Source: a virus
Strand: one strand, 5' to 3'
IMG/VR virus record: IMGVR_UViG_3300021962_000326
Coordinates: 1 to 35,175 of that record
Length of the DNA stretch: 35,175 bases
Within the stretch, counting starts at the first letter, position 1; the number at the start of each line of letters is the position of its first letter. Under the pieces are notes generated by a model. The model did not search any database, was not told where the DNA came from, and saw only the letters and a program-made list of their open reading frames with translations. This document shows, piece after piece, positions 1 to 35,175 of this stretch. The position numbers and the translations under genes are program-made.

Positions 1-240
1 AAGCGTGATTGCGTCCAGATCAAATGGGTCGAATCTTCCATGCAGCATGTAGTGACTTGTGATCTCAAAATGCTGCGCTTGTGTCAATCCAGTAAATCCA
101 AGTCGTAGCGTGTAGCCGTTGACGACATTGGCGTGGCGCACCATCAGTTCGTCACCGTCAAGAGCGCTCAGCGGTGTTGCTGGCGCGGCACCTGGCGTAA
201 AGGTACGTGACTGAGGGTTTAGCGCTGGGAAATTAGCCAT
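1..240 (-). CDS. Tail tip-associated protein, 5' partial copy at contig edge
   Basis: This is the first 80 codons of the same gene that is complete at 34795-35163; the contig edge removes the rest. Its ATG (238-240) overlaps the stop of the next gene as ATGA, the same junction seen at the right end. The three differences from the right copy all fall in third codon positions (codons 6, 25 and 66) and are silent. On the closed genome this and the right copy are a single gene. Confidence 0.9.
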   Translation of the reverse strand, partial: MANFPALNPQSRTFTPGAAPATPLSALDGDELMVRHANVVNGYTLRLGFTGLTQAQHFEITSHYMLHGRFDPFDLDAITL

Positions 241-252
241 CAGTTGTTTAAG
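1..252. repeat. Terminal redundancy, left copy
   Basis: These bases match 34924-35175 across the full 252 bp apart from three transitions: 43 C versus 34966 T, 166 G versus 35089 A, and 223 C versus 35146 T. The repeat ends at both contig edges. This is what a circular or circularly permuted genome gives when the assembler reads past the join. It covers the 5' part of the tail tip gene (1-240) and the last codons of the 812-residue gene. True direct terminal repeats are the alternative. Confidence 0.95.
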
Positions 253-16510: not shown

Positions 16511-16693
16511 TCACAGATTGTCTTGCGCCCAAGCCAATAATTCAGATCGAATCCAAAGGCCGTGCGGCCATCCTTTTTCGTCTTGAGTTAAGTGCGGCGC
16601 GTATTCAGGAAGTTCGGTGTCACGGATGGTTTCAAGCCAGCCGCCACGGTGGTGAAGCGCCAAGCGAACGGCGCTGACAGTGCGAAATTTCAT
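16511..16693 (-). CDS. Small protein, first gene after internal late promoter
   Basis: The frame is open from 16750, but its first 19 codons contain the -10 element and the 5' hairpin of the promoter at 16729-16757, so translation from the predicted transcript must start inside. The ATG at 16691-16693 gives 60 residues, with H-H-R-G-G-W-L-E-T-I-R-D and W-P-H-G-L-W-I-R-S-E-L-L. No SD is visible before this ATG; the leader is CA-rich (ACCACGCACACGC). No family was recognised. Confidence 0.65.
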   Translation of the reverse strand: MKFRTVSAVRLALHHRGGWLETIRDTELPEYAPHLTQDEKGWPHGLWIRSELLAWAQDNL

Positions 16694-16708
16694 GCGTGTG
16701 CGTGGTAC

Positions 16709-16720
16709 GGGGTCGCCCCC
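16709..16720 (-). other. 5' leader hairpin of the internal late promoter
   Basis: Reading the minus strand, GGGG pairs with CCCC around a GCGA tetraloop. It begins 9 bases after the TATACT hexamer, near the expected transcription start. The hairpin after the promoter at 21961 has the same GCGA loop. A hairpin at the 5' end could shield the mRNA from 5'-end-dependent decay; that role is inferred. Confidence 0.6.
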
Positions 16721-16728
16721 ATATAAGG

Positions 16729-16757
16729 AGTATACCCTACCGTCGGCCACGCGTCAA
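16729..16757 (-). promoter_or_regulatory. Sigma70-like promoter, GGGTATACTCC family
   Basis: On the minus strand TTGACG (16757-16752) and TATACT (16734-16729) are 17 bp apart. The -10 lies in GGGTATACTCC, shared exactly with sites at 21981-21991 and 24030-24040. The -35 overlaps the terminase stop codon. It would drive the two small genes, portal and later head genes. Confidence 0.8.
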
Positions 16758-18094
16758 TAAAGCCTGATGCCCGTGCTACGGCCAGCGTTCGCCTGCAGCG
16801 GGTTGAACTCACGCCAGACCACATACCCCAAGGCATCAACCATGTGATCGTGCCCGGCCTCCTTATCCGGCTCGCCTTTCTCCGTCCAGCTCTGTAGCTC
16901 AAGGCATTCGATCAACCTCGGGCAGCCCTGGCTTACGGTCAGCCTGACTTCGCCCTTGCCGTTTTCCAGCAAAGCCTGAACAGCAGCCACCCGATCACGC
17001 ACGGCAGGGTTAGACCGCCCAGATTGATTGCTAAACCCGTACTGCTCAAGGATTTGAATATCGGTACGGGATGCGTTGGTTGAGCGGTTACCACCCGAGG
17101 CATCGGGATAAACGTAAATGCGGTGCTGTGGATACCGGCGTTTGATTTCTTGCGCCAGAGCATCAGTGTCATGTGCGCCGGTGATTTCATCAACAATCGT
17201 CAGTCTGTTGCCGCTACGCACACCAATCACAGCGGACATATTGCCAACGTTGAAATCAACCCCGATTCGCAATGGTTCGTCACTGAAATCAGCGACAGAT
17301 GCAACGACGTGTTTACTGCGATCAAAGCGGTCGTATACCTGGCCTGTATTTAAATTCACCCACTGTCCTTCCAGATAGGACTTAATTAACTGCGGCGGAT
17401 AATTCGCCATCAGGCTGTCAACAAACCCGTCAGGCAAGAACGGGTTATCCATCGTGCGAGCACGGATCAACGCAGTGTCTGCACCAGCGTTGCGGTCAAA
17501 AGTGTCGAATGCCCAGCCGTAACCCTCAGGCGTGGTAGCGGCATAGAACTGCTGCACGTTGCCAGCACGAAGACGGGCAAGGGCCATGCGTGTGGCCTGT
17601 TCTGCTACCCGCTTGTTAGCCGTGTCCGCTTCGTCAAAACCGATAGCGCAAAGGTTCTGGCCACGGATGCGATTCCACGTTTCCATCGTGCGCAGCAGGA
17701 TCGTGTGGCTGCCCTCGGCAAAGTGCAGCGTGTACTCCGGCAACGGGCTGACGCGGAAGTCAAACGGTATTTGCCACTCTTCTAATAGGTCATCCATCGT
17801 GCGCTGCAGAATGTCCCGCAACATCGGGGCGACCGGTTCAAACAAGGCGCTGACGTACCCGACATTCAGGGCAGCCATGTGAACTGCTTTTGCGACTAGG
17901 CCGTGCGTCTTGCCCGCACCAAACCCGCACACCAGGGCGAGTTTGCGGTGCTCAGTGTCTTCTAAAAACTTCTGCTGATGCGGCAGGAGATCTGTTTTGA
18001 CACGGGCAATGGCCTGCGCTGCCGTTGGCAGGTTTTCAGCAAAGCCAGGAATAGCGAGGATGCTGCGCTGCTCAACAGCGGCTAGAACGCTCAC
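16754..18094 (-). CDS. terL: Terminase large subunit
   Basis: The packaging ATPase/nuclease, 446 residues from the GTG at 18092-18094, which overlaps the small-subunit stop as GTGA. The frame is open to a TTG at 18133, but that start would lie deep inside the small-subunit gene. Walker A is G-F-G-A-G-K-T (about residues 57-63), Walker B ends D-E-A-D (about 154-157), and the nuclease half shows R-I-G-V-D-F-N-V-G (Asp near 280), V-Y-P-D-A-S-G-G (Asp near 331) and D-H-M-V-D-A-L-G-Y (Asp near 416 and 420). All expected acidic residues are present. The stop overlaps the -35 of the next promoter. Confidence 0.95.
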   Translation of the reverse strand: MSVLAAVEQRSILAIPGFAENLPTAAQAIARVKTDLLPHQQKFLEDTEHRKLALVCGFGAGKTHGLVAKAVHMAALNVGYVSALFEPVAPMLRDILQRTMDDLLEEWQIPFDFRVSPLPEYTLHFAEGSHTILLRTMETWNRIRGQNLCAIGFDEADTANKRVAEQATRMALARLRAGNVQQFYAATTPEGYGWAFDTFDRNAGADTALIRARTMDNPFLPDGFVDSLMANYPPQLIKSYLEGQWVNLNTGQVYDRFDRSKHVVASVADFSDEPLRIGVDFNVGNMSAVIGVRSGNRLTIVDEITGAHDTDALAQEIKRRYPQHRIYVYPDASGGNRSTNASRTDIQILEQYGFSNQSGRSNPAVRDRVAAVQALLENGKGEVRLTVSQGCPRLIECLELQSWTEKGEPDKEAGHDHMVDALGYVVWREFNPLQANAGRSTGIRLY

Positions 18095-18414
18095 GCAATC
18101 AGCTTGGCCAATTTGGCCATCGTATTGATGCAACCAAGGGCAATATGTAACTGACCAGCCTTGCGGGCTTCCATGTGGAGCGTGCTGGTTTGACTCAGCA
18201 AATCTGCCAGCATTTGCGTGGTGTCATGCGCCCAGTCTTCCCGTATTTGTTGACGGGCAAGGTTGATGTATTTATCAACGCTGCGCTCCGAAACCCCCCA
18301 CGTCTCTGCCGCATAACGAACGCAATCGGAGCGTTTACCACCGCTTGCAATGATGCGAGCAAGGCGACTAGCGCGGTATTGAGTTTCGGCTCTGGTACTA
18401 CCTTTGGCAGGCAT
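18091..18414 (-). CDS. terS: Terminase small subunit
   Basis: The 107-residue helical protein has an N-terminal helix-turn-helix-like part (C-V-R-Y-A-A-E-T-W-G-V-S-E-R-S-V-D-K-Y) that would bind the packaging site, followed by a long helix for ring formation. It overlaps the large subunit by GTGA and the methyltransferase gene by ATGA. The position right before terL and the HTH make the assignment good; no diagnostic family residue was available. Confidence 0.8.
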   Translation of the reverse strand: MPAKGSTRAETQYRASRLARIIASGGKRSDCVRYAAETWGVSERSVDKYINLARQQIREDWAHDTTQMLADLLSQTSTLHMEARKAGQLHIALGCINTMAKLAKLIA

Positions 18415-19658
18415 CAGATGTCATCCTTAGCGTCGTTGAAGTGGGTTTCAGACGGGATGCAGACGGCAGTGTTACCCGTGAAGTCTTCCCAACGCTTGAC
18501 GATCACGTCGCAGTAAATGGGGTCGAGTTCCATGAGACGTGCGTGGCGGTGGATCTCCTCTGCTGCAATAAGCGTGGATCCTGAGCCACCAAACAAGTCG
18601 AGCACGGTTTGATTCATCAAAGAACTGTTGCCCATCGCTTCTTTGGCCAAAAAAGTAGGCTTTTGAGTCGGGTGCTGATTTTTGGACTTGTCGTAACCAC
18701 CAAAGTCCCAAACGGTTGTCTTGGTTCGATCTTCAGTATGAAAAGGAGATCCTTTGACGGCAAAGATGCAAGGTTCGTGAGCCCATTGATACCGAGAGCG
18801 CCCCAAGAGCATTGGTTTTTTCCAGATTAGAGTTTGATTGAAAGAAAAAGCAGTTGCAGCCAAAGCATTTAAGAACTCAAGCGTGCGCTTATCGGGAAAC
18901 CAGATGTAAGCGGCTACATCAGGCTTGCTGAACAGGTCTGCGTTATTCAAAGCAGCGATCAAAAAGTCTTGCAGTTGATCTCCAATTAGTTCGTCGTTTT
19001 CGATTACACCGTGGTTTTTCTTTCCGGGCTTAGGCCTAGCGGTGTGGTCGTAGCTCACGCCGTAAGGCGGGTCAGTAAAAACCATGTCGGCCTTTTGCCC
19101 ATCCATCAGGCGTTCAACGTGCTGCGGGTTGGTGCTGTCACCGCAGAGCAGGCGATGGTTGCCAAGGATCCAGAGGTCACCGGGTTTGGTGGTCGGGTCT
19201 TCTGGTGCCTGAGGCACCTCATCGGGATCGGTCTTGCCTTCTACGGGATCTAGCCGCTCAACCTGCTCAAGGAGGGCCTCAACGTCGTCGTCGTCAAACC
19301 AAGGACTGATGTCATGCTCGGCGCTGAGCTGCTGCAGCATTTCCGCGTCCCATTCGGCTAGGTCAGCGGTGCGGTTGTCAGCGAGGGCTAGACCAACCTT
19401 TTGATCCTCGGTCAGGCCGGTACGGCGGACGGCAATGATTTCGTCGGGGCTGGCGTCAACGATGCGGAGCCCTTCGATGCCGAGGTTGAGTGCGGCTTCA
19501 ACGGTGCCGTTACCGGCGAGGATGCGGTCGTCTTCGTCAATGACGATGGAGCGTGCGGGACCGTAACGCTGCAGTGATTCCTTGAGGAGGGACGCGGAGG
19601 TTTCAGTGCGCTTGCGGGCGTTTTTGTGATCTTGTTTGAGGTCCGACAGCGTAGCCAT
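18414..19658 (-). CDS. ParB-like domain fused to DNA adenine methyltransferase
   Basis: The 414-residue protein has an N-terminal ParB/sulfiredoxin-like domain (D-H-K-N-A-R-K-R-T, later R-I-L-A-G-N-G-T-V-E-A) and a C-terminal SAM-dependent methyltransferase. The catalytic D-P-P-Y (about 196-199) comes before the SAM-binding L-D-L-F-G-G-S-G-S-T (about 353-362), the order of the beta class, usually N6-adenine or N4-cytosine. A TTG at 19733 would extend it by 25 poor codons; the ATG at 19656-19658 is preferred. No partner restriction enzyme is seen, so it is probably an orphan enzyme that protects phage DNA or marks packaging sites. It heads the late block, next to terminase. Confidence 0.88.
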   Translation of the reverse strand: MATLSDLKQDHKNARKRTETSASLLKESLQRYGPARSIVIDEDDRILAGNGTVEAALNLGIEGLRIVDASPDEIIAVRRTGLTEDQKVGLALADNRTADLAEWDAEMLQQLSAEHDISPWFDDDDVEALLEQVERLDPVEGKTDPDEVPQAPEDPTTKPGDLWILGNHRLLCGDSTNPQHVERLMDGQKADMVFTDPPYGVSYDHTARPKPGKKNHGVIENDELIGDQLQDFLIAALNNADLFSKPDVAAYIWFPDKRTLEFLNALAATAFSFNQTLIWKKPMLLGRSRYQWAHEPCIFAVKGSPFHTEDRTKTTVWDFGGYDKSKNQHPTQKPTFLAKEAMGNSSLMNQTVLDLFGGSGSTLIAAEEIHRHARLMELDPIYCDVIVKRWEDFTGNTAVCIPSETHFNDAKDDI

Positions 19659-19797
19659 CGTTAATTCAGGTATTGCGCGAAGGATACCGCGATGTTGAAA
19701 GCTTAGCCGAAAAACTGTCGCAGGTTGGGACAAGCGGGACGGTATCGAGCCTGTGGAAAACCCACCTTTAGAAATCCTGAAATGTGCCGTAGCGCAC

Positions 19798-19826
19798 CTG
19801 TCGGGCCGATTTTTTATGGCTAATCT
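19798..19826 (+). promoter_or_regulatory. Weak candidate promoter for the first early gene
   Basis: CTGTCG (19798-19803) and TAATCT (19821-19826) are 17 bp apart, the same spacing as the strong promoters of this genome, but both hexamers are poor. The divergent region 19659-19873 has no other convincing promoter on either strand. The start would fall in the TTCCCG repeats. Confidence 0.3.
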
Positions 19827-19827
19827 C

Positions 19828-19854
19828 TTCCCGTTGTTTCCCGGGGATTCCCGG
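19828..19854. repeat. Three TTCCCG repeats at 10-bp period, with hairpin
   Basis: TTCCCG occurs at 19828, 19838 and 19848, exactly one helical turn apart. The last two repeats also form a hairpin: CCGGG (19841-19845), loop GATT, CCCGG (19850-19854). It lies in the switch region between the early and late blocks, 20 bp before the first early gene. It could be an operator array, origin iterons or a leader hairpin. Confidence 0.65.
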
Positions 19855-19873
19855 ACGAACCCGTAAACCTCCG

Positions 19874-20536
19874 ATGCGCCTTGAACTGCAAATTCCCGAT
19901 GATTTAGCCGAAGACCTGGCCCGTTTCAAGCCGAGAACCCTGTCCCTGCCTATGTTTTGCGCCTATCTACTGGAGATAGGTATTGACAGGGACGCTAAGC
20001 TACCCGCGTACCGTGTCGGTGCGGGGACACCACCTCTAGGTAACTCCACACCGAAGCAGGTTCAAGATTTAACGCCTCAGCAACCTTCCAGCGAAGGGAA
20101 GGCTGTTTCGGCTGTTGGGTTTGATGGCTGTTTGGATCTTCCGCTCTTGCCCAAAGAATGCGACACAAAAAAAGAAATAGGCTGTAAAAAACCAAAAAAA
20201 TCGGCAAAGGTTGAGTACAGCGAGGCGTTTACCTGCCTGTGGAAAACCTATCAGTCGGCACCTGAGCGAGTCTCAGCCCAGTCCAAGCCGAAGGCATTTG
20301 ACGAATGGAAAAAGGTCGTCAAGGAGGAAGGTGAAGAGCGCCTGTTGGGTGCCGTCAATAACGCCATAGCCGAACAGAAGCGGCGCAAGGCCGCCGGCGA
20401 CTTTGTAGGTAGCCTTCCCGACCTGTTTCGCTGGCTTCGTGACGGCAAGTACGAGGTGTACTTGGAAGAGCACAAGCAACAGCGCGGCGGCAAGTGGTGG
20501 GATGAAGAGAACCGCTGCTGGGTTTACGAAGACTGA
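19874..20536 (+). CDS. Putative replication organiser with RHH-like N-terminus
   Basis: The first early gene encodes 220 residues. Residues 1-40 look like a ribbon-helix-helix DNA-binding unit (strand R-L-E-L-Q-I-P, two helices, second with L-P-M-F-C-A-Y-L-L-E). A variable, Lys-rich linker (about 50-115) follows. The C-terminal part has F-T-C-L-W-K-T-Y-Q-S-A-P, a central helix with A-F-D-E-W-K-K-V-V-K-E and L-P-D-L-F-R-W-L-R-D-G-K, resembling the C-terminal domain of phage replisome-organiser/primosome proteins. The family call is from pattern only. The upstream TTCCCG array could be its own binding site. ATG at 19874; the leader lacks a clear SD. Confidence 0.55.
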   Translation: MRLELQIPDDLAEDLARFKPRTLSLPMFCAYLLEIGIDRDAKLPAYRVGAGTPPLGNSTPKQVQDLTPQQPSSEGKAVSAVGFDGCLDLPLLPKECDTKKEIGCKKPKKSAKVEYSEAFTCLWKTYQSAPERVSAQSKPKAFDEWKKVVKEEGEERLLGAVNNAIAEQKRRKAAGDFVGSLPDLFRWLRDGKYEVYLEEHKQQRGGKWWDEENRCWVYED

Positions 20537-20564
20537 TCCCTGTTAATCCAATCTGAGACTCAAC

Positions 20565-20852
20565 ATGAAACTGTACGCACCAGAAAACAAGGGCAAGTAC
20601 GTCTGGCAGACCGCCGACGCCAAGACCAAGCAGGTCAGCTACAGCGTCACCACAACGCGCACTCCGCCGCCAGACGCCTGCTACGGGCATCCCATGGGCA
20701 AGTACGACGATCAGGGTATGTACCTGACCTTCTGCCCGAACGTGGGCGCTGATGACCCCAAGAGCCCGCTGGCCGCCCGGTACGTCGTTCACCCGATGGC
20801 GCCGGCAGAGCGCGACAAGGCAGACAGTGAGCGGATTTGGCGGCAGATCTAA
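20565..20852 (+). CDS. Hypothetical early protein
   Basis: The 95-residue protein has a basic, Tyr/Lys-rich start, a Thr/Pro stretch (T-T-T-R-T-P-P-P) and a Cys pair far apart (C-Y-G-H and F-C-P-N). No family was recognised. It follows the first early gene by 28 bp. The 164-bp stretch after its stop (20853-21016) holds no gene; it contains a weak GC-rich inverted repeat without a T-run. Confidence 0.65.
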   Translation: MKLYAPENKGKYVWQTADAKTKQVSYSVTTTRTPPPDACYGHPMGKYDDQGMYLTFCPNVGADDPKSPLAARYVVHPMAPAERDKADSERIWRQI

Positions 20853-21016
20853 ACAGCAGAAAGGGCAGAGCCCGTAAGCCCCGCCCCTTCAAGATCCCTC
20901 GGCACGCCCGCCTATGCACGCGTGTTCCCGACTTCACCCCCTGATTTTACGGTTCGCCCAGTCCGTTGGCAATGGTGCAAGCAGCGTCACAGGCCAGTTA
21001 TCCAAGAACTCTGAAC

Positions 21017-21457
21017 ATGAAAAAAGCATTTGAGATGGCAGAGGTGATTGCTCTGCTGCGCCGTGGCATTGCCGCAGGTTATTGGACGCTAGAAGACCTA
21101 GACGTGCCATCACAAGGCTGGGTCATCACAATGGAGGATGCCAAGCGCATTCCCGGTTTCACACCACCGATTCACCGCAACCCCCTCAGAGATGAGCCCA
21201 CAACAGCAGAACGCGTTGAAGTCGTCAGCCCCAGAGACTTCGCGGTGGTTGAAGCCACTCCCAATCCTGTTCAACGAGGAAGCGCACCGCTACTACCACG
21301 AGCCGACGGGGCAGTGGCTGAATCATTCAGTGACGCAGGTATGCAAGGGCACGAAGGATCCGTGGGCAATGCGGCGGATCATGGAGACGAAGCACATCTG
21401 GGAGCCGCGTGGGAAAGCAGTACACAAGGCGTTGGAGGATTATCTGACGACTGGTGA
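21017..21457 (+). CDS. Small early protein with long overlap into exonuclease gene
   Basis: The ATG at 21017 gives 146 residues; a TTG (20966) and an ATG (20972) upstream are also possible. The N-terminal ~60 residues look natural (A-L-L-R-R-G-I-A-A-G-Y-W-T-L-E-D-L-D). From about residue 59 the frame overlaps the exonuclease gene by 266 bases and becomes Gly/Ala/Asp-rich, as expected of a shadow frame. The first half is therefore probably functional, while the second half may be passive read-through. A frameshift or sequence error near 21190 is an alternative. Confidence 0.5.
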   Translation: MKKAFEMAEVIALLRRGIAAGYWTLEDLDVPSQGWVITMEDAKRIPGFTPPIHRNPLRDEPTTAERVEVVSPRDFAVVEATPNPVQRGSAPLLPRADGAVAESFSDAGMQGHEGSVGNAADHGDEAHLGAAWESSTQGVGGLSDDW

Positions 21458-21872
21458 CGCTGGCGAATGGCCTGCTGAATATGCGGAATGGATTGAGCCG
21501 TTACTGGGCCATTCCGTTTGGCAGACCTATGAGGCCATCGCGTGTGAATACCGGTTGTGCGATGTAGAGCGCAGCATTGCCGGCAGCTTTGATTGCCTAT
21601 TGCGCCGTAAGGATGATCACACTCAGTTGGTGCTGGTGGATCTGAAGACGCAGGGCAAGCCTGATGCCAGCCCGTATGACGTGAGCACGCAGCTCGGCGG
21701 CTACTTGGGGATGATGAGCCTGCACTGGCCCAAGCTGTACATCCAAAAGGCTGGTGTGTTGTGGTCTCGGCCTGGCAGTACAACGCTGCAAAAGGTTGAC
21801 GTAGACGAGGCGGTGATTGAGTGGCAGGGCGCCAGGGATGCGTTTCTGATGTTGAACGCGCCGGAATTCTGA
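21192..21872 (+). CDS. PD-(D/E)XK exonuclease (RecB/Cas4-like)
   Basis: The 226-residue protein (ATG at 21192; the frame is open from 21138) starts with I-L-F-N-E-E-A-H-R-Y-Y-H-E, typical of phage recombination exonucleases. It then has G-K-A-V-H-K-A-L-E (His near 78), C-E-Y (Glu near 119), A-G-S-F-D (Asp near 134), L-V-D-L-K-T-Q (Asp near 150, Lys near 152) and T-Q-L-G-G-Y, the full RecB-type motif. It would resect DNA ends to give single strands for the annealing protein at 24093. The start region overlaps the previous gene by 266 bases. Confidence 0.88.
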   Translation: MSPQQQNALKSSAPETSRWLKPLPILFNEEAHRYYHEPTGQWLNHSVTQVCKGTKDPWAMRRIMETKHIWEPRGKAVHKALEDYLTTGDAGEWPAEYAEWIEPLLGHSVWQTYEAIACEYRLCDVERSIAGSFDCLLRRKDDHTQLVLVDLKTQGKPDASPYDVSTQLGGYLGMMSLHWPKLYIQKAGVLWSRPGSTTLQKVDVDEAVIEWQGARDAFLMLNAPEF

Positions 21873-21964
21873 TGACCGATCCTGTCTGGCCAGTGATGGC
21901 GCTGATTGGCGTTGGGCTGCTTGGCGTAACGGCGCTGCTGGCCTGGGTTGCCATGCAGGATTGA
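21872..21964 (+). CDS. Tiny membrane protein (30 residues)
   Basis: The ATG at 21872 shares its A with the exonuclease stop (TGATG), which suggests coupled translation. The product is almost entirely one hydrophobic segment (residues about 6-27, rich in Leu, Val, Ala, Gly and Trp) with a short N-terminal T-D-P and C-terminal Q-D. The stop overlaps the -35 of the promoter at 21961. It is short enough to be chance, but coupling and composition favour a real peptide. Confidence 0.5.
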   Translation: MTDPVWPVMALIGVGLLGVTALLAWVAMQD

Positions 21965-21989
21965 CAGGTCTTGCACTTAGGGGTATACT
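21961..21989 (+). promoter_or_regulatory. Strong sigma70-like promoter, GGGTATACTCC family
   Basis: A consensus -35 TTGACA (21961-21966) and TATACT (21984-21989) are separated by exactly 17 bp. The -10 is inside GGGTATACTCC (21981-21991). It is the best promoter in the window. It drives the 54-residue membrane protein gene. Confidence 0.9.
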
Positions 21990-21995
21990 CCATGT

Positions 21996-22009
21996 GGGCA
22001 GCGATGCCC
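21996..22009 (+). other. 5' leader hairpin with GCGA loop
   Basis: GGGCA pairs with TGCCC around a GCGA (GNRA) tetraloop. It begins at the base expected for transcription start, 7 bases after TATACT. The following leader is CA-rich (TCACTACACACAAACCCC) with no SD. Confidence 0.7.
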
Positions 22010-22028
22010 TCACTACACACAAACCCCA

Positions 22029-22193
22029 ATGACAAACCTCAACCGCGCTACAAAGGCTCAGTTGCTTGAGCTGATTACCGAGCAGGCCGGCACCACCACA
22101 ACACTTGAGAAACAGGTGAACGAATCCAGGGAACAGGTCACCATCGCGCTATGGATTGCGGCCATCAGCTTCTGCCTCGGCCTTCTGTTCTGA
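22029..22193 (+). CDS. 54-residue single-span membrane protein
   Basis: The protein has a polar helical N-terminal part (residues 1-36, with coiled-coil-like L-E-K-Q-V-N-E-S-R-E-Q-V) and a C-terminal membrane span (about 38-54, ending L-G-L-L-F). It is the only gene between a consensus promoter (21961) and a perfect terminator (22199). The ATG at 22029 has no SD. A strong, self-contained unit implies high early expression. The type fits small phage proteins that act at the host membrane, but no family was recognised. Confidence 0.75.
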   Translation: MTNLNRATKAQLLELITEQAGTTTTLEKQVNESREQVTIALWIAAISFCLGLLF

Positions 22194-22198
22194 TTACC

Positions 22199-22220
22199 AG
22201 CCCCTTCGGGGGCTTTTCTT
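22199..22220 (+). terminator. Rho-independent terminator with UUCG loop
   Basis: AGCCCC (22199-22204) pairs perfectly with GGGGCT (22209-22214) around TTCG, followed by TTTCTTTTCTT. It lies 5 bp after the stop of the 54-residue gene and just before the next start (22229). Confidence 0.92.
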
Positions 22221-22228
22221 TTCTTGCC

Positions 22229-22537
22229 ATGAAAAACCCCGAATCACTGCTCGGCGTTATCGCCAGCACCAAGATCGAAATTGCCCGCCATCAGGAAATC
22301 CTTGATCGCCTCATGGAGGATCTAGCCCTGATGTACACCACAGGTGACCTAGACGATCTCAAGGATGACGACGGCAACCTCAGTGCTCACGGAATCAAAG
22401 TATCCCGCTGCACACGCACGAGTTGGCAGTACAGCAATGCCGTCAAAGAGCTGCAGCAGCTAGAGCAGTTTGAGGGCGTCGCCACAAAGCGCGAAACAGA
22501 ATACTGGAGAGTGACGCTGCCAAAGGCAGAGTTCTGA
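22229..22537 (+). CDS. Conserved-type early protein of unknown function
   Basis: The ATG at 22229 gives 102 residues; the open frame upstream runs through the terminator and the end of the previous gene and is discarded. After a helical N-terminus (S-T-K-I-E-I-A-R-H-Q-E-I-L-D-R-L) it has G-D-L-D-D-L-K-D-D-D-G-N and then W-Q-Y-S-N-A-V-K-E-L-Q-Q-L, with Y-W-R-V near the end. Similar W-x-Y-S helices occur in small phage proteins near recombination genes. The start follows the terminator T-run by 9 bases. Confidence 0.65.
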   Translation: MKNPESLLGVIASTKIEIARHQEILDRLMEDLALMYTTGDLDDLKDDDGNLSAHGIKVSRCTRTSWQYSNAVKELQQLEQFEGVATKRETEYWRVTLPKAEF

Positions 22538-22743
22538 TGGCTGGCTCTCCCATAGACGATCAGATCGAAGCCATCTTGGCCAAGTACGACCTATGGGATC
22601 CAGAGCAATACACCAACGCCGTTGCCGAACTGACTAGCTACCTGCTGACCGTTGACCCCAAGGAAGAGGCACGCAGTCTGTACTACAAGTCCGCACGCGA
22701 AAAGATCCACCTAGAAAACTGCCTGATTCGCTCCCATGGCTAA
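22537..22743 (+). CDS. Hypothetical early protein
   Basis: The 68-residue, mostly helical protein starts at an ATG overlapping the previous stop (TGATG). It contains Y-D-L-W-D-P-E-Q-Y-T-N-A-V and several charged helices. No family was recognised. Overlap with the following 47-residue frame is 8 bases. Confidence 0.6.
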   Translation: MAGSPIDDQIEAILAKYDLWDPEQYTNAVAELTSYLLTVDPKEEARSLYYKSAREKIHLENCLIRSHG

Positions 22744-22879
22744 TCCGTACAACCTGTACAACTTGACTTGGCAGACGCGGTTTTTGTTCTGGCTGCTATC
22801 CAAGCGTCCTGACGTTGCTGCCATTAACTTGACGACGCCAGTTGATCATCTAGCGCGTTGCCTGAGCCATACGAAATGA
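22736..22879 (+). CDS. Small ORF coupled to rusA
   Basis: This 47-residue frame begins at ATG 22736, within the end of the previous gene, and ends TGA 22877-22879, which overlaps the rusA ATG as ATGA. It contains N-P-Y-N-L-Y-N-L-T-W-Q-T-R-F-L-F-W-L-L, a Trp/Phe-rich segment, then A-A-I-N-L. The perfect tiling between two genes supports it as real. Confidence 0.55.
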   Translation: MANPYNLYNLTWQTRFLFWLLSKRPDVAAINLTTPVDHLARCLSHTK

Positions 22880-23286
22880 AGTTTGCCGTTCAAGGCATTG
22901 AACCCGCCCCGCAAGGCAGCAAACGACACGTTGGCAACGGGCGAATGGTTGAGGCATCAGCGAAGGTCAAGCCATGGCGTTTTGCTGTTAGCCAGGCAGC
23001 CCTAGCAACCGGCGAGGCCATAACCGACGGGCAGGTGTCAGTGCAAATCACTTTCCTGTTCAACCGGCCCAAGGCGCATTACAACACCAAGGGCGAGCTG
23101 AAACCAAAGGCTCCGTTCTACAAAAGCACCAAGCCCGATTTGGACAAACTGTGCAGATCAACGCTTGACGGCATCACCGGCGTCTTGATCAAAGACGATT
23201 CACAGGTTGTCAACTTGATCTGCAACAAGGTTTACGTCAACGAGGGCGAACTACCAGGCGCACTGATTACCATCAACCCACTGTGA
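22876..23286 (+). CDS. rusA: RusA-type Holliday junction resolvase
   Basis: The 136-residue endonuclease cuts branched DNA before packaging. The frame can begin at a TTG (22858), but the ATG at 22876 overlaps the preceding stop and gives the usual RusA start. Motifs: G-I-E-P-A-P-Q-G-S-K-R near residue 8-17, then T-K-P-D-L-D-K-L (Asp near 88 and 90), S-T-L-D-G-I (Asp near 98) and I-K-D-D-S-Q-V (Asp near 107 and 108). These acidic residues are those expected to hold metal. It forms part of the recombination set with the exonuclease and annealing protein. The next gene starts with GTGA overlap. Confidence 0.9.
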   Translation: MKFAVQGIEPAPQGSKRHVGNGRMVEASAKVKPWRFAVSQAALATGEAITDGQVSVQITFLFNRPKAHYNTKGELKPKAPFYKSTKPDLDKLCRSTLDGITGVLIKDDSQVVNLICNKVYVNEGELPGALITINPL

Positions 23287-24029
23287 AAGGATCAAAGAAT
23301 CGACGGGAATGCGTCGTTTGTCAGTCAGTCTTTGTTATCCCTGTCCTAAAAGGCAATCACAAAAGCCAACGGCTGACTTGCAGTGCACTTTGCCATCGCC
23401 GCTATGTCAGCAGAAATGCAAGGCGTTGGGTCAAAGGTGAGCTTGACATTATTGAACAGCTCAGTACATCAATGCCGCCGAAGCGGTTGTACATGACATA
23501 TTGCCGAATGGCGGCTGAGCGTGGATTTCCAAAGCGATCAGAGGCCGCGTTTCGTTGCAAGCTGCGGTTGCTTGGTATTCCCTTGATGCCGGAATTGGAC
23601 TGGTACAAGCTGAATCAGTTGGCCGAGATGTTTGATACGACTAGGCATCTCGTTTACAAGTTGGTGAAAAAGGGTTTGAGGGCTGAACGCGAATCAGACC
23701 ATCCAAATCAGCCTTGGTTTGTAAGCCGTGCAGAGCTGAGGCGTTTTGCCCGTAAGCGCCCTGAACTGTTCAGGCACTTCAATCCAGATGGTTTGTTTGT
23801 TGCACTTGAGGATCGAAAGCTTATTGAGCTGATCATGGCGCAACCCAAGGTGCATCTACCCAATCGCTACAACCCCACAACGGTCAGGTGTATGGAGACT
23901 GGAAATATCTACAAGAGCTATAGGGCGGCGGCCAGGGAGGTGTTTGTTGATCCGTCGGCCATTTACGCATCGGCCAAGCACGGGCACAGAGCAGGCGGTT
24001 ACCACTGGGTTGTCGTATCTCAAATTTGA
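23283..24029 (+). CDS. DNA-binding protein with Zn-finger and NUMOD-like module
   Basis: The 248-residue protein starts at GTG 23283, overlapping the rusA stop. The N-terminus has a Cys4 zinc-binding pattern (C-V-V-C and C-S-A-L-C about 20 residues later). The centre has a helix-turn-helix-like region (L-N-Q-L-A-E-M-F-D-T-T-R-H-L-V-Y-K-L) and the C-terminus a NUMOD-type domain (C-M-E-T-G-N-I-Y-K-S-Y-R-A-A-A-R-E-V-F and G-G-Y-H-W). Such modules are usually attached to homing endonucleases, but no HNH or GIY-YIG nuclease is seen here. It may be a regulator or a nuclease remnant. The promoter at 24010 lies inside its last codons. Confidence 0.7.
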   Translation: MKGSKNRRECVVCQSVFVIPVLKGNHKSQRLTCSALCHRRYVSRNARRWVKGELDIIEQLSTSMPPKRLYMTYCRMAAERGFPKRSEAAFRCKLRLLGIPLMPELDWYKLNQLAEMFDTTRHLVYKLVKKGLRAERESDHPNQPWFVSRAELRRFARKRPELFRHFNPDGLFVALEDRKLIELIMAQPKVHLPNRYNPTTVRCMETGNIYKSYRAAAREVFVDPSAIYASAKHGHRAGGYHWVVVSQI

Positions 24030-24038
24030 GGGTATACT
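24010..24038 (+). promoter_or_regulatory. Promoter of GGGTATACTCC family before the annealing gene
   Basis: TTGTCG (24010-24015) and TATACT (24033-24038) are 17 bp apart; the -10 is inside GGGTATACTCC (24030-24040), identical to two other sites. The -35 is weaker (4 of 6). It overlaps the end of the preceding gene and drives 24093 onward. Confidence 0.8.
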
Positions 24039-24044
24039 CCAGAT

Positions 24045-24057
24045 GGGTCCGAAGCCC
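24045..24057 (+). other. 5' leader hairpin
   Basis: GGGT pairs with GCCC (one T-G wobble) around CCGAA. It starts at the predicted transcription start. The downstream leader to the ATG at 24093 is CA-rich and SD-less. Confidence 0.5.
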
Positions 24058-24092: not shown

Positions 24093-24803
24093 ATGACTGA
24101 TTACCCCAACCTTGGGGATGTGATCACTCAGGCTGATGTATCAACCAAAGGCACCGGCTCCTACGCCGCTGATTACATCAACTGGTGTCGCGTTTCCCAC
24201 CTACTCCACGATCATGCGCCTGGCTGGCAGTTCGCTTTACAGGCTCATCACGAAACAGGCCACGCATGGAAGGCCCCCGACGGAACCGCTTATGTGGTCG
24301 GGTTCTTTGAGCACGCCAGCGGCCACGAAACGCCGTATTTCCCTCAGGCGGTTATGGACAACCGCAACAACGCCATTGCGTTTGAAAAGGTCACAGCACG
24401 TGATCTCACCGATGCGCACCGCCGTTGTCTTTGTACCGCTGCTGCTGCTCAGTTTGGTCTTGGCTGGCAACTCTGGGCGCGGGAGCCGGTAGAAAATCCG
24501 CACCGTGATATCAAGCCTGCACTACAGCAGGAAGCACCCAAGGCTGAACCGTCCCAAGTGCAGGACACTCAGCCAAAGCCTGAACCCAAGGCCAAGGGCA
24601 AGCCTGAGTCCAAGATCACCTTCCTGACCGACGATCAGGTTGAGGAAGTCAAGGCCATGGTGAAGGCATACGACAAGCGTGACGATCTGATTGCTGCCTT
24701 CAAAAAGCAGTTCAAGATCATGGCGCCACGTATCGCTGATCGCATCCAATTCCCCGAACACAAGGAATTCATTGAGAAGTACATCGCTGAAAATCCCGTA
24801 TGA
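24093..24803 (+). CDS. Sak3/DUF1071-like single-strand annealing protein
   Basis: The 236-residue protein is the likely annealing recombinase. The core (about 10-140) has Y-I-N-W-C-R-V-S-H-L-L, G-T-A-Y-V-V-G-F-F-E and then Y-F-P-Q-A-V-M-D-N-R-N-N-A-I followed by D-L-T-D-A-H-R-R-C-L-C-T-A-A-A-A-Q-F-G-L-G. The R-C-L...F-G-L-G signature recalls the DUF1071/Sak3 family. A Lys/Pro/Glu linker (about 145-175) and a short helical C-terminal domain follow. It works with the exonuclease at 21192 and RusA. Its own promoter with 5' hairpin suggests high expression. ATG at 24093. Confidence 0.75.
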   Translation: MTDYPNLGDVITQADVSTKGTGSYAADYINWCRVSHLLHDHAPGWQFALQAHHETGHAWKAPDGTAYVVGFFEHASGHETPYFPQAVMDNRNNAIAFEKVTARDLTDAHRRCLCTAAAAQFGLGWQLWAREPVENPHRDIKPALQQEAPKAEPSQVQDTQPKPEPKAKGKPESKITFLTDDQVEEVKAMVKAYDKRDDLIAAFKKQFKIMAPRIADRIQFPEHKEFIEKYIAENPV

Positions 24804-24982
24804 CAGGGCGCCGGCCCAAAACCGCAGAGGAACTCAACCGCAAGAAAAACCGCTTTTGTGTAGCGGCCAAACTTCCGGCTGATCTTCACCGTCAACTAAG
24901 GGCTTACTGCGCCAAATCGGGGCAGAACATCAATCAAGCCCTTCGCCACATCATCGCAACCTTCCTAGCTACTCATGGCTGA
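24800..24982 (+). CDS. Small RHH-like DNA-binding protein
   Basis: The 60-residue protein overlaps the annealing gene by ATGA. It has a basic start (R-R-P-K-T-A-E-E-L-N-R-K-K-N-R), a strand F-C-V-A-A-K-L-P and two helices (L-H-R-Q-L-R-A-Y-C-A and I-N-Q-A-L-R-H-I-I-A), the pattern of ribbon-helix-helix regulators. It may control the early promoters, which is inference. Confidence 0.6.
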   Translation: MTGRRPKTAEELNRKKNRFCVAAKLPADLHRQLRAYCAKSGQNINQALRHIIATFLATHG

Positions 24983-25870: not shown

Positions 25871-25899
25871 TTGCAACAGCACTGTTTTCGGGGTTTACT
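25871..25899 (+). promoter_or_regulatory. Fourth, weaker promoter with GGGTTTACTCC
   Basis: TTGCAA (25871-25876) and TTTACT (25894-25899) are 17 bp apart. GGGTTTACTCC differs by one base from the shared GGGTATACTCC. No 5' hairpin is seen. The leader to the ATG at 25968 is again CA-rich and SD-less. It would restart early transcription after the minus-strand gene. Confidence 0.6.
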
Positions 25900-25967
25900 C
25901 CGCCCAAATAGCCGCTACCATTCACGCAACCGGGGCGACCTGGCCAACCGACAACCCACACCGCACC

Positions 25968-26105
25968 ATGAAAAACACTGTTTACAACCTGCTGCTGTTT
26001 GTCCTTCCGGCAGCAATCTTCGGCGTCATCATTCACGACGGTTTGACACTCAAAACCGCTCATCACAGCGGCACTCAGCACGCCATCTACACCACCACAA
26101 AATGA
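25968..26105 (+). CDS. Tiny membrane protein (45 residues)
   Basis: The first gene after the promoter at 25871. Residues about 6-24 form a membrane span (L-L-L-F-V-L-P-A-A-I-F-G-V-I-I); the tail is His/Thr-rich. Its stop overlaps the ATG of the next gene (26102-26105, ATGA). The promoter, span and coupling all support it. Confidence 0.65.
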   Translation: MKNTVYNLLLFVLPAAIFGVIIHDGLTLKTAHHSGTQHAIYTTTK

Positions 26106-34798: not shown

Positions 34799-35163
34799 AA
34801 CGTGTACGGCGCCACTAGCTCCAGCTCAACGCTAACGGAGATCACGTCAGGCGTATAGGTTGTGTCAGGTGCTTTTGCGTAGATCCAGCTGTAGCCAGAG
34901 GGGAATGTCAGCCCAGAGCCCAAAAGCGTGATTGCGTCCAGATCAAATGGGTCGAATCTTCCATGTAGCATGTAGTGACTTGTGATCTCAAAATGCTGCG
35001 CTTGTGTCAATCCAGTAAATCCAAGTCGTAGCGTGTAGCCGTTGACGACATTGGCGTGGCGCACCATCAGTTCGTCACCGTCAAGAGCACTCAGCGGTGT
35101 TGCTGGCGCGGCACCTGGCGTAAAGGTACGTGACTGAGGGTTTAGTGCTGGGAAATTAGCCAT
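34795..35163 (-). CDS. Tail tip-associated protein
   Basis: The complete copy of the gene truncated at the left contig edge encodes 122 residues. It shares F-P-A-L-N-P, F-T-G-L-T-Q-A-Q-H-F and Y-A-K-A-P with the 171-residue protein encoded next. The gene lies between the J-like tip gene (whose last codons run to 35175) and its paralog, so a role in the tail tip or fibre base is likely. It overlaps both neighbours by ATGA. Confidence 0.6.
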   Translation of the reverse strand: MANFPALNPQSRTFTPGAAPATPLSALDGDELMVRHANVVNGYTLRLGFTGLTQAQHFEITSHYMLHGRFDPFDLDAITLLGSGLTFPSGYSWIYAKAPDTTYTPDVISVSVELELVAPYTL

Positions 35164-35175
35164 CAGTTGTTTAAG
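34924..35175. repeat. Terminal redundancy, right copy
   Basis: Right copy of the 252-bp redundancy, aligned with 1-252 without gaps and with three silent differences. The last 13 bases (35163-35175) are the 3' end of the 812-residue tip gene, complete at 240-2678. Confidence 0.95.

What the first reader, a model, noticed from the sequence alone, without database searches (positions are those of the whole stretch)
16709..24057. Repeated promoter-hairpin module with an exact GGGTATACTCC core
Three promoters (21961-21989 plus, 24010-24038 plus, 16757-16729 minus) share 11 identical bases around TATACT, have a 17-bp spaced TTGACA/TTGTCG/TTGACG, and are each followed 7-9 bases later by a GC hairpin near the predicted transcription start. 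Two hairpins have the same GCGA loop. All leaders are CA-rich without an SD. Conservation outside the hexamers goes beyond a plain sigma70 promoter and suggests a phage-specific regulator, a start-site signal or a 5' cap-like hairpin that blocks 5'-dependent RNA decay. Hexamers, spacing and hairpins are seen directly; the role is inferred.
Basis: partly seen in the sequence, partly recalled or inferred. Interest (0 to 1): 0.78.

Follow-up and report, generated by a model that had tools for sequence, protein, structure and literature searches.

The report
Cyanophage promoter, operator and 5' hairpin cassette
A group of viruses that probably infect ocean and estuary cyanobacteria reuse one ready-made switch in front of many unrelated small genes: a promoter, a likely repressor-binding palindrome, and an RNA hairpin placed exactly where the message should begin, which may shield the message from decay.

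Summary
The three GGGTATACTCC promoter-hairpin sites (A 21961+, B 24010+, C 16757-) are real, though one 11-mer in three copies is not unusual by itself. A fourth hairpin site was missed (D, 25871-25967). In 103 distinct motif contexts from phages with terminase of at least 79% identity, 101 carry a hairpin followed by ATG. Stems co-vary (0.609 against 0.233 shuffled). In a search allowing any offset from 0 to 35, stem bases pile up 6-9 nt after the -10, that is at the predicted +1; bacterial controls show none there.

The core and the hairpin are separable. After the terminase gene many relatives carry GGGGTATACCCC, a perfect palindrome, in the 18-nt spacer of a different promoter. Site D has GGGGTTTACTCC. 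The palindrome sits at variable distances from the -10, which suggests a repressor operator rather than a sigma element. Its reader is unknown; a ribbon-helix-helix protein in site B's operon (24800-24982) is a candidate only. The hairpin most likely hides the 5' end from 5'-dependent decay (inferred). The cassette precedes at least 29 unrelated gene families, nearly all very short. I found no published description. New variant of known kinds.

The parts
21961..21989 (+). Site A promoter: TTGACA (21961-21966), 17 nt, TATACT (21984-21989)
21980..21991 (.). Site A operator-like core GGGGTATACTCC (imperfect palindrome, one G-T mismatch)
   Evidence: conserved in relatives
21996..22009 (+). Site A 5'-terminal hairpin GGGCA-GCGA-TGCCC (GNRA loop), stem base 7th nt after the -10
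22010..22028 (+). CA-rich, SD-less leader of gene A
22029..22193 (+). Gene A, 54 aa, C-terminal hydrophobic stretch, no known family
24010..24038 (+). Site B promoter: TTGTCG, 17 nt, TATACT
   Evidence: orthologues
24030..24040 (.). Site B operator-like core GGGTATACTCC (close to 2 bits per base in orthologues, -35 degenerate)
24045..24057 (+). Site B hairpin GGGU-CCGAA-GCCC (weak here; orthologues have AGGGC-CGGA-GCCCU and other hairpins in the same place)
24093..24803 (+). Gene B: Sak-type single-strand annealing protein
24800..24982 (+). Ribbon-helix-helix protein in the same operon as B, candidate (unproven) reader of the operator
16729..16757 (-). Site C promoter: TTGACG (16757-16752), 17 nt, TATACT (16734-16729), overlapping the terminase 3' end
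16727..16737 (.). Site C operator-like core GGGTATACTCC
   Evidence: in most relatives this place holds GGGGTATACCCC
16706..16723 (-). Site C hairpin UAUGGGG-GCGA-CCCCGUA (inner 4 bp at 16720-16709)
16511..16693 (-). Gene C, 60 aa, no known family; replaced by unrelated small genes in relatives
25871..25921 (+). Site D promoter region: TTGCAA-17-TTTACT (25871-25899) and/or TTTACT-16-TACCAT (25894-25921)
25890..25901 (.). Site D core variant GGGGTTTACTCC, conserved in relatives
25930..25943 (+). Site D hairpin CCGGG-GCGA-CCUGG, 8 nt after TACCAT
25968..26105 (+). Gene D, 45 aa, N-terminal hydrophobic stretch, CA-rich SD-less leader

Best explanation
It is a reusable phage expression cassette with three functional layers. 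(1) A sigma70-type promoter read by host RNA polymerase. (2) A 10-12 bp inverted repeat, GGRGT-WW-ACYCC, lying on the -10 at sites A-C, in the spacer in the C' relatives, and over the -35 (or on a degenerate -10) at D. A regulator, most likely phage-encoded, binds it as a dimer and blocks polymerase, so that all the cassettes are switched off together after an early burst. (3) A GNRA-type hairpin that begins within about 0-3 nt of the transcription start, followed by an unstructured C/A-rich, SD-free leader. It hides the 5' triphosphate end from 5'-end-dependent decay and leaves the start codon open. Shown by sequence comparison: the conserved parts, their geometry, the covariation, the movement of the palindrome relative to the -10, and the swapping of downstream genes. 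Inferred: repression, the identity of the repressor, RNA stabilisation, early timing, and that the host is a picocyanobacterium.
For: Core conserved at SSAP orthologues chosen without the motif, at 10 of 11 bases at 1.7-2.0 bits with a degenerate -35. Present at 3-4 conserved places per phage and absent from phages with terminase of at most 75% identity, apart from isolated chance matches. 101 of 103 distinct motif contexts lead into a hairpin plus ATG. Perfect palindrome GGGGTATACCCC in the 18-nt spacer of TTGACA/TTGCCA-CATAAT promoters. GGGTATACCC also lies in spacers of two promoters each in marine relatives L216, L217 and L219. Distances from the element's TATA (or TTTA) start to the -10 start are 0, 7, 11, 15 and 22, with no helical phase. 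Hairpin: covariation 0.609 against 0.233 shuffled and at most 0.16 for slid partners; stem position peaks 6-9 nt after the -10 in core phages (38 of 46), marine relatives (13 of 15) and no-core relatives (6 of 12), against 0 of 8 in bacterial contigs. Loop types other than GNRA fill the same place at B, which favours a structural role. No sigma factor in 15 genomes of the group and no host regulon. A 5' hairpin impedes RppH and stabilises mRNA in E. coli, as reviewed in PMC3997798.
Against: No protein-DNA or transcript data. At A-C the palindrome is imperfect (a G-T pair) and the variation seen there (GGA, TCT, TCA) is not symmetric. The hairpin at B in this window is weak (-4.4 kcal/mol), and two core copies in L101 and L143 lack a hairpin. 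Whether a 5' end protects mRNA in picocyanobacteria was not tested.
Confidence: 0.6

Rival explanations
1. The core is not an operator but a polymerase-recognition element: an extended -10 plus discriminator (GGG-TATACT-CC) read by host polymerase altered by a phage factor, which would also excuse the poor -35 elements.
For: The core is invariant exactly around the -10 while the -35 degenerates (TAGACA, TTGCGC) in site-B orthologues; sites A-C keep T at the last -10 base where C' has C.
Against: In C' the same element is a perfect palindrome in the spacer of a promoter with its own -35 and CATAAT -10, 18 nt apart; marine relatives carry it 11-15 nt upstream of the -10; no sigma region 2 in 15 genomes of the group.
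Confidence: 0.22
2. The hairpin is a specific protein- or polymerase-binding RNA site, as lambda boxB or HK022 put sites are, modifying elongation or acting as a processing or translation-control site, not a decay shield.
For: GNRA loops (GCGA/GAGA) dominate, 107 of 143 classified, and boxB-type hairpins use GNRA-like loops (own knowledge).
Against: At site B the loop is CGAA, CGGA, CUUC, CGUUC or UUUGA while the hairpin's place is kept; no Rfam match in the window; the stem is pinned to the predicted +1 rather than placed at varied distances in the leader; no boxA-like sequence seen in the leaders.
Confidence: 0.18
3. Recent copying: the cassette spread by recombination between accessory gene modules and is conserved only because it is young; apart from a sigma70 promoter nothing is selected.
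For: Cassettes precede at least 29 unrelated gene families, as recombining moron modules would.
Against: Stems covary while the core stays fixed; the core is kept while flanking upstream DNA is unrelated between lineages at site B; conserved over SSAP DNA as low as 67% identity.
Confidence: 0.05

Closest known systems
acr-aca operons (Aca repressors; PMC9410906, PMC9410881)
   Same: Small accessory phage genes behind consensus-like promoters that contain an inverted repeat within the core promoter, bound by a small repressor encoded in the operon; autorepression.
   Different: Here one palindrome serves 3-4 dispersed operons; the candidate regulator is RHH rather than HTH and is unproven; a 5'-terminal hairpin is part of the cassette; no anti-CRISPR was identified.
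SvtR/AvtR ribbon-helix-helix viral repressors (PDB 2kel; PMC5569661)
   Same: Tiny RHH virus protein that binds several sites in the viral genome including its own promoter; the window RHH profile hits 2kel at E=3e-4 and its model superposes on Arc/CopG.
Mycobacteriophage L5 stoperators and P1 C1 operators
   Same: Short repressor sites scattered over one phage genome.
   Different: Stoperators are asymmetric, oriented and also lie within genes; here sites are near-palindromic and nearly always sit in promoter cassettes. P1 comparison from own knowledge.
5'-terminal stem-loops of ompA/papA mRNA (Emory et al. 1992; Bouvet and Belasco 1992, cited in PMC3997798)
   Same: Stem at or next to the transcript's 5' end, which impedes RppH and stabilises the mRNA.
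   Different: Here reused with covarying stems across many promoters of one phage group and paired with a fixed operator; stabilisation not measured.
Lambdoid morons (also noted for cyanosiphovirus P-SS2, PMC2784084)
   Same: Small accessory genes with their own sigma70 promoter, exchanged between relatives.
   Different: Morons carry individual promoters; here the promoter-operator-hairpin is a shared standard part.

Membership tests
sigma70-type promoter | -35 and -10 hexamers 16-18 nt apart | tested here: met
   A 11/12, C 10/12, B 9/12 matches, spacer 17
sigma70-type promoter | Transcription start 6-8 nt after the -10 | not testable with these tools
   no RNA data
repressor operator (dyad in promoter) | Inverted repeat inside the core promoter, shared by several promoters of the phage | tested here: met
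   GGGGTATACCCC in spacer; imperfect dyad at -10 (A-C) and at D
repressor operator (dyad in promoter) | Bound by a cognate protein that represses | not testable with these tools
   RHH is a candidate only
acr-aca | Aca-family HTH regulator in the operon | tested here: not met
   Operon of B encodes an RHH protein, not a recognised Aca
acr-aca | Upstream gene is an anti-CRISPR | tested here: inconclusive
   Small genes without known family
5'-terminal stabilising stem-loop (ompA class) | Stem starts within a few nt of the transcript 5' end | tested here: met
   relative to predicted +1 only: offsets peak at 6-9 nt after the -10
5'-terminal stabilising stem-loop (ompA class) | Increases mRNA half-life by blocking 5'-dependent decay | not testable with these tools
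   needs half-life measurements
structured RNA element | Compensatory base changes in the stem | tested here: met
   38 both-side changes, covariation 0.609 vs 0.233 shuffled
Rfam RNA family | Match above gathering score | tested here: not met
   0 matches
lambda N/boxB or put antitermination site | boxA next to the hairpin, or fixed loop identity | tested here: not met
   no boxA-like sequence seen in the leaders; loops vary at site B
L5-type stoperators | Asymmetric oriented sites, many also within genes | tested here: not met
   3-4 near-palindromic sites per genome, 101/103 in cassettes
phage-sigma promoter | Phage encodes its own sigma factor | tested here: not met
   no Sigma70_r2 in 15 genomes of the group, though S-CBS1, S-CBS3 and KBS-S-2A have one annotated
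RHH protein (24800-24982) | strand-helix-helix fold like Arc/CopG | tested here: met
   weak Pfam RHH hits, HMM hit to 2kel, model rmsd about 1.3 A to Arc/CopG over 40 residues; pTM only 0.44

The most novel reading that the evidence does not exclude
The cassette is a standard 'plug-in' control part by which a whole group of picocyanobacterial siphoviruses expresses an exchangeable set of small host-takeover or counter-defence proteins in one early, self-limiting burst, with a stabilised 5' end. Searching for the cassette would then find counter-defence genes in cyanophages as aca genes do for anti-CRISPRs.
Probability: 0.2. Interest if true: 0.75.

Novelty: new variant of a known kind. Interest (0 to 1): 0.58.

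Why it matters
Regulation of gene expression in these siphoviruses is almost undescribed: the literature searches returned only predicted sigma70 promoters (P-SS2) and nothing on this motif. A conserved operator of 3-4 sites per genome makes the unknown regulator findable by a single pull-down. A hairpin fixed at the predicted +1 with covarying stems is a natural test of whether 5'-end protection matters in cyanobacterial mRNA decay. Because the cassette marks at least 29 unrelated gene families, it is a handle for finding accessory phage genes.

Tried and rejected
Host regulon: GGGGTATACYCC occurs in 60 of 386 cyanobacterial-phylum genomes against about 29 for the reversed pattern, and the copies inspected mostly lie inside reading frames; rejected. 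The genome contigs pattern scan returned chance matches from unrelated bacteria. The viral scan for the palindrome plus hairpin gave the same family or chance matches. Phage sigma factor: none in the window or 14 relatives. Rfam: none. Strict scan for the architecture in KBS-S-2A, S-CBS1, S-CBS3, S-H1 and MED4-184: essentially nothing, so no isolate with the full cassette was found; blastn of site B against 50,697 phage records gave only chance hits. RHH as the sole reader: co-occurs with the core but also present without it, so left as a candidate. Upstream regions of RusA in marine phages without the palindrome gave no clear alternative operator.
Full report
What the window is. A 35,175-base virus record (G000) with near-identical ends (1-252 and about 34924-35175), so probably a complete, terminally redundant siphovirus. 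Its terminase is closest to named phages of Prochlorococcus and Synechococcus (MED4-184, S-H1, KBS-S-2A; 54-58% identity), and its SSAP matches only cyanophages. The host is therefore probably a picocyanobacterium (inference).

The observation. All three sites exist exactly as described. Hairpins A and C are stable (-7.7 and -11 kcal/mol) and share a GCGA tetraloop; B is weak (-4.4). Leaders are C/A-rich and lack an SD, although most genes of this window also lack a clear SD. Three copies of an 11-mer are not remarkable here, but the combined promoter-hairpin module is: 3 copies against 7 single occurrences in 200 shuffles.

A missed fourth site. Scanning relatives for the architecture without the core turned up a conserved site downstream of the SSAP gene, present in the window at 25871-25967: GGGGTTTACTCC, TACCAT, then CCGGG-GCGA-CCUGG, a CA-rich leader and ATG. 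It can be read as TTGCAA-17-TTTACT or as TTTACT-16-TACCAT. The second reading puts the hairpin at the predicted +1.

Conservation. Phages with terminase identity of at least 79% carry A, B, D and C or its variant; phages at or below 75% carry none beyond isolated chance matches. Whole records of relatives show 2-4 sites each and about zero for the reversed pattern. At site B, sampled from the SSAP start codon and not from the motif, GGGTATACTC is almost invariant while the -35 is TAGACA, TTGCGC, TTGTCG and so on. Of 103 distinct motif contexts in the group, 101 lead into a hairpin and ATG.

The core is a separate element. Directly after the terminase, where the window has site C, many relatives have TTGACA or TTGCCA, an 18-nt spacer holding GGGGTATACCCC, CATAAT, 8-9 nt, then GGGG-GCGA-CCCC. 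Here the -10 is a different hexamer and the core is a perfect 12-bp palindrome. Marine relatives L216, L217 and L219 carry GGGTATACCC in the spacers of two promoters each, both with a hairpin at the expected place. Measured from the element's TATA (or TTTA) start to the -10 start, the distances are 0, 7, 11, 15 and 22. An activator would need a fixed helical phase and a sigma element a fixed position; a repressor that only has to overlap the promoter needs neither. This is why I prefer an operator. It remains an inference.

Who reads it. No sigma factor is found in 15 genomes of the group. Host genomes show no regulon. The operon of site B encodes a 60-aa ribbon-helix-helix protein, whose profile matches SvtR 2kel (E=3e-4) and whose model superposes on Arc and CopG. 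Short contiguous dyads and autoregulation fit RHH repressors (PMC5569661). Against it, homologues occur in phages without the palindrome, such as S-CBS3, and the residues aligned with Arc's reading strand differ between groups. I leave it as a candidate; HTH proteins at 23283, 25271 and 26592 are others.

The hairpin is a separate element too. It persists where the core is absent or altered. With the offset left free from 0 to 35 nt, stem bases fall 5-9 nt after the -10 in 38 of 46 core-phage cases, 13 of 15 marine cases and 6 of 12 no-core cases; bacterial contigs give 0 of 8 and Markov shuffles almost none. The core-phage set includes the cassettes themselves; the marine and no-core sets are largely independent of them. 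Stems covary: 38 double changes, covariation 0.609 against 0.233 shuffled and at most 0.158 for slid partners (rows with at least three inner pairs were used, so this leans towards the structure). Without that selection 28 of 30 distinct GNRA sites pair at 3 or more of the inner 4 positions, and the paired fraction is 0.89 against at most 0.76 shuffled. Loops are mostly GCGA/GAGA, but site B uses CGAA, CGGA, CUUC, UUUGA and CGUUC, so structure matters more than loop identity. A stem at +1 is what blocks 5'-end-dependent decay in E. coli, and Bacillus RppH needs at least two unpaired 5' nucleotides (PMC3997798). Stabilisation here is inferred.

What it controls. The downstream genes fall into 29 unrelated clusters, mostly proteins of 45-100 aa, plus the SSAP. 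Most small ones have no known family. After the terminase the cassette stays while the gene changes, so it is a landing pad for exchangeable genes. This resembles morons (PMC2784084) and the control of acr genes by Aca repressors through inverted repeats inside the promoter (PMC9410906). No anti-CRISPR identity is shown and no Aca protein was found.

Verdict. Real, conserved, and not described in the literature I could search. It combines known kinds of parts (sigma70 promoter, dispersed operator, 5'-terminal stem-loop) in a standard cassette. The mechanism needs transcript mapping, DNA-binding tests and RNA half-lives.

Noticed in passing
window 1-252 and 34924-35175: Near-identical ends (about 3 mismatches), so the genome is probably circularly permuted or terminally redundant although the record counts as linear.
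   Followed up: partly
relatives: L102, L113, L116, L130, L134 and others, right after the terminase gene: Hot spot where the conserved cassette is followed by more than 20 different unrelated small ORFs.
   Followed up: partly
window 18414-19733 (-): DNA methyltransferase whose best phage matches are annotated as adenine-specific methyltransferase and, in one case, ParB/sulfiredoxin; divergent from the early operon.
   Followed up: no
G393, G395, G400 (records of L185, L184, L146): These relatives encode a phage integrase while the window and the others tested do not: the group may mix temperate and lytic members.
   Followed up: no
L236 23375-23569 (S-CBS3 gp32), L201-L227: The small RHH gene directly after the SSAP gene is widely conserved in cyanophages, annotated only as hypothetical.
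   Followed up: partly
L217 4275-4526, also L216: NrdR-like zinc-ribbon ORF just upstream of a palindrome-bearing promoter; by-eye resemblance only.
   Followed up: no
L228-L230, upstream of the SSAP gene: Promoter-like site followed by a hairpin and a CA-rich leader in more distant phages without the core.
   Followed up: partly
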